41,656 nt of DNA from Alphaproteobacteria bacterium. GTDB lineage: Bacteria; Pseudomonadota; Alphaproteobacteria; Geminicoccales; Geminicoccaceae. How positions within the stretch are numbered: position 1 is the first letter of the stretch; every line of letters starts with the position of its first letter. Location of the stretch: the NCBI GenBank assembly GCA_030431615.1, contig JAUIID010000019.1, forward strand, positions 1 through 41,656, written 5' to 3'. Under the pieces are notes generated by a model. The model worked only from the letters and a program-made list of their open reading frames with translations, made no database searches and was not told where the DNA came from. A program made the position numbers and the translations under genes. This document shows positions 1 to 4,989 of the stretch, one piece after another.

Positions 1-43
1 GAGTCGGCTCCTGACCGGTTCTTCAACCAGAAGGAGAAGACCC

Positions 44-412
44 ATGCGTATCCTGCTCGCCGCCGCGGCCCTGGTCGCGCTCTCTGCGGGTGCGGCCTCG
101 GCCGAACCCGTGAAGCTCGACGAGGCCGCACTCGGTGATGTGGCCGGCGGGTTGTCGATCGGCTTCGGGCCGATCGACATCGGAGTGGCCAACGTCATCA
201 CCACTCCGGTCCTGGTCGACACCAGCCTCACCAACGATCTCACCAACAACATCAGCAACAACTTCGACCTGGACCTCGATTCCCAGGTGGGTACCGCCCT
301 GGCGGTCAACACCAACGCGGTCATCGCCGCGTTCTCCGAGAACGTCGCCGGAATGGGCACCGGAGTCTCCGCTCTGGACTTCACTACCGGCGCAGCCGGC
401 GTCGCTCCCTAG
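44..412 (+). CDS. Small exported Asn-rich protein with Sec signal plus double-glycine leader; putative fibre subunit
   Basis: 122 residues. Residues 1-20 form a Sec signal peptide ending ASA|EP. It is followed directly by LDEAALGDVAGG (residues 25-36), which has the spacing of a double-glycine leader recognised by C39 peptidases. The remaining 86 residues are rich in Asn, Val, Ala, Gly and Thr and contain no Lys, Arg, Cys or Trp, a composition typical of self-assembling secreted proteins. An AAGGAG ribosome site sits about 8 bases before the ATG. It is the first gene of an operon with a similar protein, a C39 peptidase and an outer-membrane barrel. By analogy with Pseudomonas FapB/FapC I infer an exported amyloid-like subunit or nucleator; a secreted peptide or bacteriocin-like product is the alternative. 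No sequence family was recognised from the mature part. Confidence 0.75.
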   Translation: MRILLAAAALVALSAGAASAEPVKLDEAALGDVAGGLSIGFGPIDIGVANVITTPVLVDTSLTNDLTNNISNNFDLDLDSQVGTALAVNTNAVIAAFSENVAGMGTGVSALDFTTGAAGVAP

Positions 413-433
413 CACGCTGCGTCGAACTTGAAA

Positions 434-465
434 GGCGCTCCCTGGGCCTCGGCCCCGGGGGCGCC
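434..465 (+). terminator. Intercistronic hairpin between the two small exported-protein genes
   Basis: Arms 434-448 and 451-465 pair over about 15 positions with one G-U pair and one mismatch around a 2-base centre. The downstream stretch is pyrimidine-rich (TCCTTCCTCC) but has no true T-run. It could be a partial terminator or an mRNA-stabilising stem that makes the first gene's product more abundant than those of the genes after it. Confidence 0.5.
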
Positions 466-508
466 TCCTTCCTCCCCACCATCCGGAACTCGATCGGAGC
501 GACAGAAG

Positions 509-955
509 ATGCGTGCCATGAACCTGCTCTTCGCCGGCATGCTCGTCGTGCCGGGGATGCTGCTGCCCCAGACCGGCCACGCCGAGCCCAGGCCGCTCAA
601 CGACGAAGCGCTTGGCGAAGTCACCGGTGGTCTCTTCGACGTCTACGTCGTGATGCCGGTCGTCGTCGTGCACAACAACAACAACGCGGTCGCCACCGGC
701 ATTCATTCGCAAAACGTGACCGCCGATGCCGTTGCCAACGTGGCGGTCAATCCAGTCATCAACATCGAGCCGACGGACATGATCGGCACCATGGCGCCAG
801 TGGTCGTCAATGCGCCACTTGTCGGCGGCATCGCCGGTCCGGAGGTCATTGCCCCGGCCATCGGCGGCTCGGCCGTTGCCGCCGAGGTCATCAATGCCGT
901 GCCCACCTGGGTGCCCTGGGCCGCCGAGCTGCGCGGCTCGCTGGGGGTGAGATGA
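509..955 (+). CDS. Second small exported protein with Sec signal plus double-glycine leader; putative fibre subunit
   Basis: 148 residues from the ATG at 509, preceded by GGAG about 10 bases upstream; an in-frame ATG three codons later is an alternative start. A signal peptide (about residues 1-25, ending GHA|EP) is followed by LNDEALGEVTGG (residues 30-41), clearly the same leader as in the gene before it. The mature part holds a run of four Asn residues and many short Val/Ala/Asn/Gly segments. It has no Lys or Cys, and Arg occurs only near the C-terminus. Its stop overlaps the start of the C39 peptidase gene (ATGA), so the two are translationally coupled. I infer a second substrate of that peptidase and of the downstream barrel, probably a fibre subunit. 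Confidence 0.72.
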   Translation: MRAMNLLFAGMLVVPGMLLPQTGHAEPRPLNDEALGEVTGGLFDVYVVMPVVVVHNNNNAVATGIHSQNVTADAVANVAVNPVINIEPTDMIGTMAPVVVNAPLVGGIAGPEVIAPAIGGSAVAAEVINAVPTWVPWAAELRGSLGVR

Positions 956-1605
956 GCACGCCCCAAGTGTGGCGCCGCCGCCTCCTCGCCGCCGGGGCGC
1001 TGGCGCTCGTCGCACTCGCCGCACCCGCCCGGGCCGATGTGTCGGAAGCCTACGTCAAGCGGGTCCGCACCTTCATCGAGATGCGCCAGGCCAATGTCGT
1101 GCTGCAGGAATGGGACCTGAGCTGCGGTGCCGCCTCGCTCGCCACGCTGCTGACCTACCAGCACGGCGATTCGGTGCCGGAGAAGGAGATCGCCATGGCC
1201 ATGCTCAAGGCGACCGAGGCCGACCTCGTCCGGCAGCGGCTGGGCTTCTCGCTCCTCGACCTGAAGCGCTACCTCGCCAACCGGGGCTATGTGGGCGACG
1301 GCTACGGCGAGGTGGCCGTCACCGACCTCGTCGACCTCGCGCCGGCCATCGTGCCCATCAGGATCCAGGCCGCCTACGACCATTTCGTCGTCTTACGCGG
1401 CCTGTCGAACGGTCGGGCGGTCCTCGCCGATTCCGCCTACGGCAACCGCACCATGCCGATCGGCGAGTTCCTCGACGTCTGGCAGGGCCGGGTCGCCTTC
1501 GTCGTCCGGCGTCCCGACGACCCGCCGCAGCAGAACCTGCTCGCCCTACGCGACGACGAGCTGCTCATCGTCCCGCCCGCAATGGTGCGCGCGGTGATGC
1601 ACTGA
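952..1605 (+). CDS. Stand-alone exported C39-family cysteine peptidase (FapD-like)
   Basis: 217 residues. An arginine-containing signal peptide (about residues 1-28, ending ARA|DV) predicts the periplasm. The C39 fold is intact: Gln52 and Cys58 in QEWDLSCGAAS give the oxyanion and nucleophile residues, His144 lies in YDHFVVL and Asp160 in LADSAYG. Unlike bacteriocin-exporter C39 domains there is no attached ABC transporter or membrane domain. C39 enzymes cut after double-glycine leaders, and such leaders are present in both upstream genes and in the barrel gene downstream. In Pseudomonas the equivalent FapD is a periplasmic C39 peptidase of the functional-amyloid system. The gene overlaps the preceding one by four bases. 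The family call is firm; the substrates are inferred. Confidence 0.88.
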   Translation: MSTPQVWRRRLLAAGALALVALAAPARADVSEAYVKRVRTFIEMRQANVVLQEWDLSCGAASLATLLTYQHGDSVPEKEIAMAMLKATEADLVRQRLGFSLLDLKRYLANRGYVGDGYGEVAVTDLVDLAPAIVPIRIQAAYDHFVVLRGLSNGRAVLADSAYGNRTMPIGEFLDVWQGRVAFVVRRPDDPPQQNLLALRDDELLIVPPAMVRAVMH

Positions 1606-1627
1606 GCGCGCCCAGGGAATTGCCGAC

Positions 1628-3088
1628 ATGCCCCCCAGCTTTCAGATGATCCCGCCCCGCGCACAACCGGCCGCACCGATCGCGTCGCCGAAGCTCTCAA
1701 GGCCAACGCGGCTGCTCATCACGACCGCGCTCTCCCTCTCACTCTGGTACGGCCTGGTCCAGGGCACTGCCCTCGGCTATGCCCAGCTCCGCGACCTGCT
1801 GGATGCGCCCGCGGAAGCGGCGCCGGGCCAGGCCTCGCGCGCGCCGGCACCAGCCCGATCCCCGGCAACCCGAGCCGCGCGCCCGGATGCCGATGCACTT
1901 CGTCAGGAGTACATCCGAAGGCTGAACGCCATCGACCCCGTCGTCACAGCCACCGTGCTCGCCCCCGATGCCGCAGCCAGCCGGGGCGATGCGCCGTCCG
2001 GGGGCGCCGTCCCGGGCAGTGTCGGAAGGCCCGCCGAAGCAATGCCGGCGCCGGCCGTCGACACGGAAGGTGACGCGGAGGGCGGCACGACGCGCGACAT
2101 CGTGCTCGGCATGCTGCAGGAGTTCGGCCTGGTCTCGAGCCGGTCCGGCGGGTCGCTGTCGGACAACCAGCTGGACGGCATTGTCGGTGGCCAGGCCGCA
2201 CCGGACGGGCTGGCCGCCGCTTCGGGCGCCGCCACCGAGGACGAGCCGGATCCGCAGCTCGACGCCCTCAACCGCGTGCTGGTGGAGGGAGGCGGCCTTC
2301 TGCTGCCGCCCTGGACGGTCGAGCTGCAGCCGGAAGGCCGCTACTCCTACAAGGGCGCCAATGGCCTGCTGATCACGCAGCAGAATGGCCAGAACAGCGT
2401 GATGGCGCACAGTGCCGACATCACGAAATACGAGGCAGCCATCACCGGACGCATGGGCCTGCCGTGGCACAGCCAGGTCGAGCTGCGCGTACCCTATACT
2501 CATGTCAGCGAGGAATCGTCGGTCGGCGCCAGCAACTCGGACAGCTCCAGCTCGCATGGACTGGGCGACATCGAGGTGGGTCTGTCGCACCAGTTGCTGC
2601 GCGAGAGCGGCTGGATCCCCGACATGATCGGCGAGATCCGCTATCGCGCCCCGACCGGCGACGACAATTTCGGCAATGACGCGCTGCCGGTCGGCTCCGG
2701 CTTCCATGGCGTCACCGGCCGCGTCACCTTCGTCAAGTCGCTCGATCCCGTGGTTTTCCTTGGCAGCGCCGGCTATACGGCGAACTTCGAGGACACCAAG
2801 GAGGGCTTCAAGATCGACCCTGGCGACAGCCTCGAGCTCGGGATCAATGCGATCCTCGCTGCCGGGCCGCGGGTGTCGCTGCGCACCGGGTTCGGCCTCG
2901 CCTTCACCAGCGAGGCCAAGGTCGACGGCGACAAGGTCAGCGGCTCGGACAGGACGGAGGGTGTGCTCAATGTCGGCGGCGCGGTCGTCCTGCCCGGCAA
3001 GAACCTGCTCGATCTCGGGGTGGGCGTTGGTGTCACCGAAGATGCCCCCGATGTCGCCGTTCGTTTGGCATTGACCCACCGCTTCTGA
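1628..3088 (+). CDS. Outer-membrane beta-barrel with long N-terminal extension and internal double-glycine motif (FapF-like)
   Basis: 486 residues. A hydrophobic segment at about 29-50 acts as signal or anchor. It is followed by a low-complexity Ala/Pro/Gly region and short helical stretches (LRQEYIRRLNAID; IVLGMLQEFGLV). LSDNQLDGIVGG at 177-188 is a third copy of the leader motif found in the two small proteins. From about residue 223 to the end there are amphipathic strands ending in ...ALTHRF with a terminal Phe, the usual outer-membrane barrel signature, similar to the Phenol_MetA_deg barrel family. About 264 residues would suit a 12-stranded barrel. FapF of Pseudomonas likewise has an N-terminal helical plug before its barrel and exports amyloid subunits. 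I infer an export pore processed by the upstream peptidase. Confidence 0.8.
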   Translation: MPPSFQMIPPRAQPAAPIASPKLSRPTRLLITTALSLSLWYGLVQGTALGYAQLRDLLDAPAEAAPGQASRAPAPARSPATRAARPDADALRQEYIRRLNAIDPVVTATVLAPDAAASRGDAPSGGAVPGSVGRPAEAMPAPAVDTEGDAEGGTTRDIVLGMLQEFGLVSSRSGGSLSDNQLDGIVGGQAAPDGLAAASGAATEDEPDPQLDALNRVLVEGGGLLLPPWTVELQPEGRYSYKGANGLLITQQNGQNSVMAHSADITKYEAAITGRMGLPWHSQVELRVPYTHVSEESSVGASNSDSSSSHGLGDIEVGLSHQLLRESGWIPDMIGEIRYRAPTGDDNFGNDALPVGSGFHGVTGRVTFVKSLDPVVFLGSAGYTANFEDTKEGFKIDPGDSLELGINAILAAGPRVSLRTGFGLAFTSEAKVDGDKVSGSDRTEGVLNVGGAVVLPGKNLLDLGVGVGVTEDAPDVAVRLALTHRF

Positions 3089-3182: not shown

Positions 3183-4052
3183 ATGGCTCTTGATATCTTA
3201 TCCCAGCTCTTGCGACAGACGACGCGAACGAAGGATCGCTTCAATCGCGACCGTTTTCGCAATCTCGTGCACTATATATGCTGGGTCTGCGACAACCCGC
3301 GTACTCTGGGAGTCAAGCGGCTCGGGCGGGTGTTGTGGTACAGTGAGCGCAACGTCTACCTGGAAACCGGACGCTGGCTGAGTGGCGCCACCTATTTGCG
3401 CCAGCAGGGCGGCCCCCACCCGCGGCCACTGGAGCCGATGCTGCAGGAGCTGGAGGCCGGTGGTGCGATTGCCCGTCGCGTCGCCGACCGAAGCGACGAT
3501 TTCGACCTCCTGTTCGCGGTTCGGCGACCCGATCTCTCGCAGTTCAGGCCCGAAGAGATCAGCATCGTCGAGGCGGTGATCAGGGTGGTCTGCCTCGACG
3601 CGCGGGGCGCGGTCGCCCATCAGGCGGCGCATGACCAGGTCTGGCAGATCGCCAGGATCGGCGAGCCCCTGCCTTACTACACGGTGTTTGCCGGACGACC
3701 CGGTGACCTGCTGCCCGCCGATATCGACTGGGCGATGCGCACCATCCGGTCGCCGGCGAAGGACGAAACGGTGGACGCCTTCCACGAACTGGCGGAGCGG
3801 GCGAGCCCGAAGGTCGCGGACTGCCTGAAGCTGCAAGCGATCGAGGGCGTCCTCTGGCATCTCAATCACGATCCGACCATCGGCGTGTCCCTGCCCGTCA
3901 ACGATGCCTCCTGGTTCATCTACAAGCAGGCCGAGCACCAGCGGCTGCTGGTGCCGGAAGTGGCCGTCGTCTATCGCTTCGATGTGGAAGAGCTGCTGCT
4001 CGAGTCGTTGCGCATCGGCAGTGTCGACGACGTCGACGAAGATGATCTCTAG
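3183..4052 (+). CDS. Panacea (SocA-like antitoxin) domain protein with possible ParE-like C-terminal domain
   Basis: 289 residues. Residues about 25-178 match the Panacea/SocA pattern: a helical start, LGRVLWYSERNVYLETG followed by LSGATYLRQQGGPHP, and later WQIARIGEPLPYYTVF. Panacea domains are known as antitoxin or chaperone-like parts of toxin-antitoxin pairs and as ClpXP adaptors. The rest (about 195-277) runs FHELAERASPKVADCLKLQ, then NHDPTIGVSLP and VAVVYRFDVEELLLESLRI, which resembles the ParE/RelE toxin fold layout. That second assignment is only an inference. No separate partner toxin gene is adjacent. The 94-base gap before the gene is AT-rich and may hold its own promoter. The acidic tail is DDVDEDDL. 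Confidence 0.62.
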   Translation: MALDILSQLLRQTTRTKDRFNRDRFRNLVHYICWVCDNPRTLGVKRLGRVLWYSERNVYLETGRWLSGATYLRQQGGPHPRPLEPMLQELEAGGAIARRVADRSDDFDLLFAVRRPDLSQFRPEEISIVEAVIRVVCLDARGAVAHQAAHDQVWQIARIGEPLPYYTVFAGRPGDLLPADIDWAMRTIRSPAKDETVDAFHELAERASPKVADCLKLQAIEGVLWHLNHDPTIGVSLPVNDASWFIYKQAEHQRLLVPEVAVVYRFDVEELLLESLRIGSVDDVDEDDL

Positions 4053-4122: not shown

Positions 4123-4851
4123 CTAGTTGGTCAGGTGGAGGCTCGCGTCGCTCGGCCTCTGCACCTGCTGACCGGTTTCCGACAGCATCTCCTTCGCCAG
4201 AAGTGCGGCGTGCGTCCGGTTCGTGGCGCCGAGCTTGCGCATGATATGGCGCATATGCACCTTGACGGTCGTCTCACAGATCTCGAGCTCGTAGGCGATG
4301 ATCTTGTTCGGCTTGCCTTCGCCGAGGCCGGCAAGAACCTCGATCTCCCGCGGCGTGAAGAAGTCGATTGCCAGATTGGCCTCCGGGCGATTGCGCGGAT
4401 CGGCCTGCGGACCGGACGTGGCGGGCGCGCCGGCGTTCGCCATGACCGGCGGAAAGGCCGTACCGCCGATCATCAGCAGCCGGAGGCACTGGATCAGCAG
4501 ATCCATGGACACGCTCGACGCCAGGTAGCCCTTGGCACCGAGCTGCATGGCTTCCGTGACGTCGTGCGCATCGAAGTCGTCGGTGACGATCAGGATAGGG
4601 ACGCCCGGCAAGGATTTCTCGATGGCGACGAAATCTTCCCGCAAGGCCGAATTCTTCGCGAGGCCGCCCCCGCCGAGCAGCAGGACCGCCGCCACGACGT
4701 CGCGATCGACGGCCGCCTCGCCCAGCAGTGCTTCCAGTGAGCTCACGGAGGCAGCGGGCCAGCTGGACGCCAGTGCCGCTTCCAGGCTGTGCCGCCACAG
4801 CACGCGACGGTCGGCTATGCAGATGCCAAACGGCTCAGTGAGCGAGGGCAT
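4123..4851 (-). CDS. LuxR/NarL-type transcription regulator with degenerate receiver domain
   Basis: 242 residues from the ATG at 4851; an in-frame TTG at 4890 would add 13 residues but gives no better domain start. The N-terminal half has receiver architecture (ICIADRRVLWRHSL; ILIVTDDFDAHDV; LGAKGYLASS). However, the phosphoacceptor Asp is missing, the segment reading AAVLLLGGGG, and the conserved Lys after GYL is replaced. The C-terminal half is a LuxR helix-turn-helix: FFTPREIEVLAGLGEGKPNK, then TTVKVHMRHIMRKLGATNRT. It is therefore probably phosphorylation-independent, as CsgD of the curli system is. It lies convergent to the Panacea gene and about 1 kb from the fibre operon. Control of that operon is a guess from position. 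Confidence 0.8.
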   Translation of the reverse strand: MPSLTEPFGICIADRRVLWRHSLEAALASSWPAASVSSLEALLGEAAVDRDVVAAVLLLGGGGLAKNSALREDFVAIEKSLPGVPILIVTDDFDAHDVTEAMQLGAKGYLASSVSMDLLIQCLRLLMIGGTAFPPVMANAGAPATSGPQADPRNRPEANLAIDFFTPREIEVLAGLGEGKPNKIIAYELEICETTVKVHMRHIMRKLGATNRTHAALLAKEMLSETGQQVQRPSDASLHLTN

Positions 4852-4989
4852 CCTTTGGCAGTCCTCGCACCTGGAGGCGACGGAAGGCAATCGAACAATC
4901 CCTGGTTGTTTTGCTGAGGCATCCTGTTCGCTTCTAAGTCATCCGTATCACGCACCTGAGAGCTTCGCAACCAGAACGCTTCCATCACG

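What the first reader, a model, noticed from the sequence alone, without database searches (positions are those of the whole stretch)
44..3088. Minimal, divergent Fap-like export system: two tandem-leader small proteins, periplasmic C39 peptidase, outer-membrane barrel
Seen: two small proteins each with a Sec signal followed at once by a double-glycine leader, an exported stand-alone C39 peptidase with intact Cys58/His144/Asp160 and Gln52, and an outer-membrane barrel, all in one tight operon. Established: Pseudomonas Fap uses a C39 peptidase (FapD) and a barrel with N-terminal plug (FapF) to export amyloid subunits. Inferred: this is a minimal relative in an alphaproteobacterium with two substrates and no FapA or FapE. 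The substrates' lack of Lys and Cys and their Asn/Val/Gly richness suit fibre formation.
Basis: partly seen in the sequence, partly recalled or inferred. Interest (0 to 1): 0.88.

Follow-up and report, generated by a model that had tools for sequence, protein, structure and literature searches.

The report
Fap-like export with tandem-leader cargo
An alphaproteobacterium of the family Geminicoccaceae carries a relative of the Pseudomonas amyloid-export machine in which the small cargo proteins, and even the outer-membrane pore itself, bear a recognisable cutting signal for the dedicated protease, which makes the unknown target of this protease family directly testable.

Summary
In detail: two small proteins with a Sec signal followed at once by a GG leader, an exported C39 peptidase and a barrel lie in one operon (44-3088). 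The barrel is FapF-like by sequence (E 2.5e-20) and fold (FapF Z 31, 1.7 Å, plug helix included). But it is not a 'minimal Fap': the window is a whole contig cut at its left end, and two close copies show a third small protein upstream. The C39 falls in a large clade apart from Fap and Fil. Of 80 relatives fetched genome-wide, 70 have Sec+leader ORFs (175 in 921 kb; 4 in 400 kb of control DNA). The window clade has something I found strictly in no other of 130 barrels: a perfect leader (LSDNQLDGIVGG) inside the barrel protein, just before its plug helix. Best mechanism: Sec export, periplasmic C39 cut, exit through the barrel; the same cut probably also frees the barrel from its N-terminal domain. 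Leader-like motifs also occur in canonical FapA and FapE, whose protease FapD has no known substrate. Closest published systems: Pseudomonas Fap, Fil, and Neisseria Nap (2025). Fibre formation is untested. New variant of a known kind.

The parts
44..412 (+). Cargo gene sp2 (122 aa): Sec signal, leader LDEAALGDVAGG (nt 116-151), mature 86 aa, acidic, no Lys/Cys
430..471 (+). Strong stem-loop between the two cargo genes, kept in both other copies
   Evidence: -32.1 kcal/mol, z -4.0; homologous hairpins in L011 and L115
509..955 (+). Cargo gene sp3 (148 aa): Sec signal, leader LNDEALGEVTGG (nt 596-631), mature 107 aa starting LFDVYVVMPVVVVHNNNNAV
952..1605 (+). Exported stand-alone C39 peptidase (217 aa), catalytic Cys58/His144/Asp160, Gln52
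1628..3088 (+). FapF-fold outer-membrane barrel (486 aa): conserved hydrophobic segment 25-55, variable linker, plug helix 209-220, 12-stranded barrel 231-486
2156..2191 (+). Leader motif LSDNQLDGIVGG inside the barrel protein (residues 177-188), predicted cut after Gly188
   Evidence: conserved in L115 as LSEIELDGIVGG
2252..2287 (+). Plug helix of the barrel (residues 209-220), identical in L115
3183..4052 (+). Gene of unknown function that follows the barrel also in L115; weak SocA/Panacea similarity; membership of the system uncertain
   Evidence: (E 0.0096, below cut-off)
4123..4890 (-). LuxR/NarL-type regulator, convergent; relatives beside about 30 of 94 related loci

Best explanation
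A two-step export system of the FapD/FapF kind. Cargo proteins cross the inner membrane by Sec; signal peptidase leaves a pro-leader of about 16 residues (EPxxLxDxxLxxVxGG). The periplasmic C39 peptidase recognises the leader (hydrophobic residues at -12, -7, -4) and cuts after GG. The mature peptides leave through the FapF-type barrel and most likely assemble on the outside. In this clade the barrel precursor carries the same leader in front of its plug helix, so the peptidase probably also cuts the pore free of its N-terminal domain. Shown: gene content, leaders and their conservation, linkage, folds. Inferred: cleavage, route, pore processing, extracellular assembly.
For: Leader directly behind a Sec signal in both cargo genes and in their copies; 175 such ORFs around 80 related C39 genes against 4 in 400 kb of control DNA; barrel adjacent in 75 of 80; catalytic residues intact; barrel fold with plug helix = FapF, Z 31.3; barrel-borne leader scores above all 360,363 control 12-mers and is a conserved island (75%) between linker stretches that are 22-40% identical. 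Published precedent: periplasmic FapD needs its active-site Cys for FapC secretion (PMC5557850).
Against: No cleavage, secretion or fibre has been measured. In Pseudomonas, mass spectrometry saw FapA to FapD unprocessed and the FapD substrate is unknown, so cutting of cargo in general is not established. The window's own cargo has too few relatives for a structure (pLDDT 32).
Confidence: 0.72

Rival explanations
1. Bacteriocin-like or lytic peptide system, as the Neisseria nap island: GG peptides processed by a C39 peptidase and exported by a FapF homologue act on sibling or other cells rather than form fibres.
For: nap couples GG peptides with a C39 (NapP) and a FapF homologue (NapF) (PMC11798529); the leaders are of the class II bacteriocin type; cargo is very diverse (62 clusters).
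Against: Nap peptides are cationic; the window's three mature cargo peptides are acidic (net -4, -8, -5) with no Lys; no immunity-like gene recognised next to them.
Confidence: 0.2
2. The peptidase acts only on the pore (or as a chaperone), and the leader-like segments of the cargo are docking sites that are not cut.
For: The barrel carries the best-scoring leader of all; FapD substrate unproven and FapA to FapD seen unprocessed in Pseudomonas.
Against: Leaders in cargo keep the small residues at -2/-1 (A/G then G) in nearly all of 175 cases, which a docking site would not need; most barrels of the group lack a leader.
Confidence: 0.12
3. The barrel is a hydrophobic-compound channel of the Phenol_MetA_deg/COG4313 kind that merely sits next to a peptidase and small exported proteins.
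For: Pfam names the barrel Phenol_MetA_deg; the COG4313 channel is the next fold (Z 26.6).
Against: FapF is nearer (Z 31.3, 26% identity, plug helix included); persistent linkage to C39 and leader cargo across classes and phyla.
Confidence: 0.05

Closest known systems
Pseudomonas Fap (FapA-F), PMC5557850
   Same: Periplasmic C39 peptidase, FapF-fold barrel with plug helix, small exported cargo in one operon; leader-like motifs also in FapA and FapE
   Different: C39 and barrel far below FapD/FapF cut-offs and in another clade; no FapB/FapC repeats; cargo with plain GG leaders; leader inside the barrel precursor
Fil 'putative pilus system' (FilA/B/C, NCBIfam NF050077-79)
   Same: FilA-type cargo with Sec signal + MDDAALSGVTGQ leader beside C39 and barrel; FilB is the best NCBIfam hit of the window C39
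   Different: C39 in a separate clade; leader ends in GQ, not GG; score far below the FilB cut-off
Neisseria nap island (NapA-C, NapP, NapF), PMC11798529
   Same: GG peptides + C39 peptidase + FapF homologue in one locus
   Different: Cationic peptides that promote autolysis; the window cargo is acidic; a Sec signal in front of the GG leader is not mentioned in the text read
Class II bacteriocin/microcin export (C39-ABC transporters)
   Same: Leader type and C39 chemistry
   Different: There the C39 domain is cytosolic and fused to an ABC transporter; here it is a separate exported protein and the cargo has a Sec signal in front of the leader

Membership tests
Pseudomonas-type Fap operon | FapD-family C39 above the curated cut-off | tested here: not met
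   92 bits against a cut-off of 330; own clade outside Fap
Pseudomonas-type Fap operon | FapF fold with plug helix | tested here: met
   Z 31.3 to 5o65 from model residue 210; the curated FapF family cut-off of 700 bits is not reached (72.5)
Pseudomonas-type Fap operon | FapB/FapC amyloid repeats (GNxGxNxxAGxxNQQxN) | tested here: not met
   absent from both window cargo proteins, present in a control FapC
Pseudomonas-type Fap operon | FapE present | tested here: inconclusive
   no match of NF058559 in the whole genome; the model does find FapE in two fetched Fap loci, but the assembly is incomplete
Pseudomonas-type Fap operon | Cargo forms amyloid fibres | not testable with these tools
   needs expression, staining and microscopy
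Fil system | FilB/FilC/FilA above curated cut-offs | tested here: not met
   FilB 114.7 of 475 bits, FilC 26.2 of 630; no FilA hit for the window cargo; separate clade
C39/FapF-type export with tandem-leader cargo (the clade described here) | Exported C39, FapF-fold barrel and Sec+leader cargo adjacent; C39 in the same clade | tested here: met
   (clade support 92 by SH-aLRT, quick search)
Neisseria nap island | NapP/NapF kinship and cationic lytic peptides | tested here: inconclusive
   C39 hits N. gonorrhoeae at 33% identity; window cargo acidic; Nap loci were not fetched

The most novel reading that the evidence does not exclude
The pore of this export system is itself a substrate of the cargo protease: an N-terminal domain, perhaps still anchored in the inner membrane by the conserved hydrophobic segment 25-55, is cut from the barrel at LSDNQLDGIVGG just before the plug helix, so that one peptidase both matures cargo and sets the pore. 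By extension the same leader type marks the unknown substrates of FapD (FapE, perhaps FapA).
Probability: 0.45. Interest if true: 0.78.

Novelty: new variant of a known kind. Interest (0 to 1): 0.63.

Why it matters
FapD is required for amyloid secretion in Pseudomonas, yet its substrate is unknown (PMC5557850, PMC6173800). Here is a widespread sister group whose cargo, and in one clade the pore, bear an unmistakable C39 leader behind a Sec signal, so the question what the periplasmic C39 cuts becomes a mutate-one-glycine experiment. The leader is also a search handle: it points to a large, mostly unannotated set of small secreted proteins (62 cargo clusters in 66 loci), some of them curlin-like.

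Tried and rejected
AlphaFold of sp3 with three sequences gave no structure. Profile comparison of sp3 with the curlin-like cargo matched only in the leader (probability 12.5), so no homology of the mature parts is claimed; the resemblance PVVVVHNNNNAV / PVIIIQIGNNNTAV is by eye. Pfam scans of 61 cargo proteins gave no consistent domain; one curlin-repeat hit at E 0.004. The matrix trained on the tandem-leader clade does not by itself pick the FapE site (best site in 7 of 27 FapE proteins), so FapE rests on its own family consensus. A first dN/dS for the C39 against C149 used a wrong frame and was redone as codon counts (29 synonymous, 20 nonsynonymous differing codons of 190). Literature searches for a Sec + double-glycine tandem leader found no description, within the open-licence papers held. 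The motif counts use a simple hydrophobicity rule for the signal, not a trained signal-peptide predictor.

Full report
The observation. The four genes are present at the stated coordinates. Small protein 44-412 begins MRILLAAAALVALSAGAASA|EPVKLDEAALGDVAGG|LSIGFG and small protein 509-955 begins MRAMNLLFAGMLVVPGMLLPQTGHA|EPRPLNDEALGEVTGG|LFDVYV (bars: predicted cuts, inferred). The C39 gene (952-1605) overlaps the second small gene by four bases; the barrel gene follows after 22 bases. The window is a complete contig (C244) of a 314-contig assembly, so the left end of the operon is missing.

Other copies. The same assembly holds a second, 88-96% identical copy at the end of contig C149: three tandem-leader genes (L011 4804-5118, 5160-5486, 5576-6022) and the start of the C39 gene. 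C149 ends in a 55-base string that also occurs in the window, and the window starts with a 28-base string present in C149, so the assembly broke at repeats; two loci or two strains cannot be told apart. A more distant paralogue on C150 (L012) has C39, barrel and three divergent tandem-leader genes. A contig binned as Thioalkalivibrio (L115) has the whole unit: sp1, sp2, sp3, C39 (67% identical), barrel (60%) and the next gene. Hence at least three cargo genes per unit. dN/dS of the small genes is 0.17-0.67. The nearest named relatives are Geminicoccaceae.

Peptidase. Pfam Peptidase_C39 7.8e-12; NCBIfam FilB 4.8e-33 and FapD 2.8e-26, both below cut-off. Cys58, His144 and Asp160 are invariant in ten homologues, Gln52 nearly so. 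There is no ABC transporter domain.

Barrel. PDB FapF E 2.5e-20. AlphaFold with 56 sequences gives pLDDT above 90 from about residue 210; best solved relative FapF 5o65, Z 31.3, 1.7 Å over 261 residues, the alignment starting in the plug helix (model 210, FapF 88); the COG4313 channel follows at Z 26.6 without that helix.

Leader in the barrel. Residues 177-188 read LSDNQLDGIVGG. A 12-position matrix trained on 148 leaders of other loci gives it 25.8 bits, more than any of 360,363 control 12-mers. Between window and L115 the linker stretches 111-150 and 189-208 are 22% and 40% identical, the motif 75% and the plug helix 100%. Among 130 barrel-bearing frames only these two have the strict motif at a sensible place (one further pattern match, in L042, is a coiled-coil stretch). 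The hydrophobic segment 25-55 is 68% identical, more than expected for a discarded signal peptide (inference). Rouse et al. speculated that FapD may cut FapF at the junction bearing GG motifs to yield a fragment like their crystallised one (PMC5557850); this clade shows a clear leader at the equivalent place.

Linkage. In the host family, 10 of 14 loci with both C39 and barrel show a Sec+leader neighbour under the first motif rule. A genome-wide scan with ten C39 sequences found at least 555 relatives; the best 80 came from alpha-, beta- and gammaproteobacteria, Desulfobacterota and Acidobacteriota. Of these, 75 have the barrel in the fetched stretch. Strict Sec+leader ORFs: 175 in 921 kb, in 70 of 80 loci, against 4 in 400 kb of control DNA from host-family genomes, none of the four with Asp at -6. 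The consensus is L[TS]DAQMDxV[TS]AG, mostly starting 3-5 residues after the signal-peptidase site.

Tree. C39 proteins fall into four groups: Fil (100), Fap and near-Fap (95), a second near-Fap group with RGGF-type FapE (91), and the tandem-leader group with the window (92; SH-aLRT values from a quick search). Window, C149 and L115 form a clade (99) beside most of that group (82). The supports at 91, 92 and 82 are moderate.

Cargo. 162 unique mature parts fall into 62 clusters; median length about 80; rich in Ala, Ser, Thr, Gly; 125 without Cys, 67 without Lys; 90 acidic, 61 cationic. The window-type three are acidic and lack Lys and Cys. In sp3 the first 23 mature residues LFDVYVVMPVVVVHNNNNAVATG are unchanged in L115 although the whole protein is 63% identical. 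One betaproteobacterial cluster reads QxNxSPVTVVQ...GNTAxVxSGN, curlin-like by eye, with one weak Pfam curlin hit.

Canonical Fap and Fil. FilA-type cargo has MDDAALSGVTGQ or a close variant as the best matrix site in 5 of 5. Pseudomonas-type FapA has LSDxD[IF]xx[IV]SSG as the best site in 5 of 6 proteins, and the sixth has LSDGDFASVASG at a lower rank; FapB, FapC and FapF show no site at a shared position. FapE has, directly behind its signal, PIELKDxE[LM]AxLRGRY in Pseudomonas-type loci and LxDxELxxxRGGF in relatives, in 27 of 33 loci examined, but the matrix does not single it out. Mass spectrometry by Rouse et al. lacked the N-terminal part of FapE but covered FapA throughout, which fits FapE cutting and speaks against complete FapA cutting.

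Regulation. A LuxR/NarL-type regulator (4123-4890, minus) has relatives beside about 30 of 94 loci. A strong stem-loop between sp2 and sp3 is kept in all three copies.

Known and new. Colocalised fapD-fapF genes in further phyla were reported in 2018 (PMC6173800), and the Neisseria nap island couples GG peptides with a C39 and a FapF homologue (PMC11798529). I found no description of the Sec + GG tandem leader as the mark of this cargo, nor of a leader inside the pore (open-licence papers only). I file it as a new variant of the C39/FapF export kind: it works like Fap; it is not Fap.

Noticed in passing
L075, L076, L077, L078, L113, L114 (canonical Fap loci): FapA carries LSDxD[IF]xx[IV]SSG and FapE carries PIELKDxE[LM]AxLRGRY directly behind the signal: candidate cutting sites of FapD, which were said to lack canonical C39 sequences.
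   Followed up: partly
window 430-471; L011 5504-5545; L115 about 752-785: Stable stem-loop between the second and third cargo genes in all three copies; may set their relative expression.
   Followed up: partly
window 4123-4890 minus and L012 2502-3335: LuxR/NarL-type regulators beside about a third of the related loci, often convergent with the barrel gene.
   Followed up: partly
L116, L119, L121, L124, L155 (Noviherbaspirillum, Keguizhuia, Herbaspirillum, Oxalobacteraceae): Tandem arrays of short cargo genes with curlin-like mature parts (QINISPVIIIQIGNNNTAVVYSGN), upstream of a barrel on the other strand.
   Followed up: partly
window 3183-4052: Gene of unknown function between barrel and regulator, found next to the barrel only in L115 besides; weak SocA/Panacea similarity.
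   Followed up: no
L079 (G141:C78) and L089 (G193:C11): Tandemly duplicated FapD-FapE units in near-Fap loci.
   Followed up: no
L011 (contig C149) against window 1-1522: Two 88-96% identical copies of the operon start in one assembly, broken at shared repeats: paralogues or strain mixture (contamination estimate 4.94%).
   Followed up: partly
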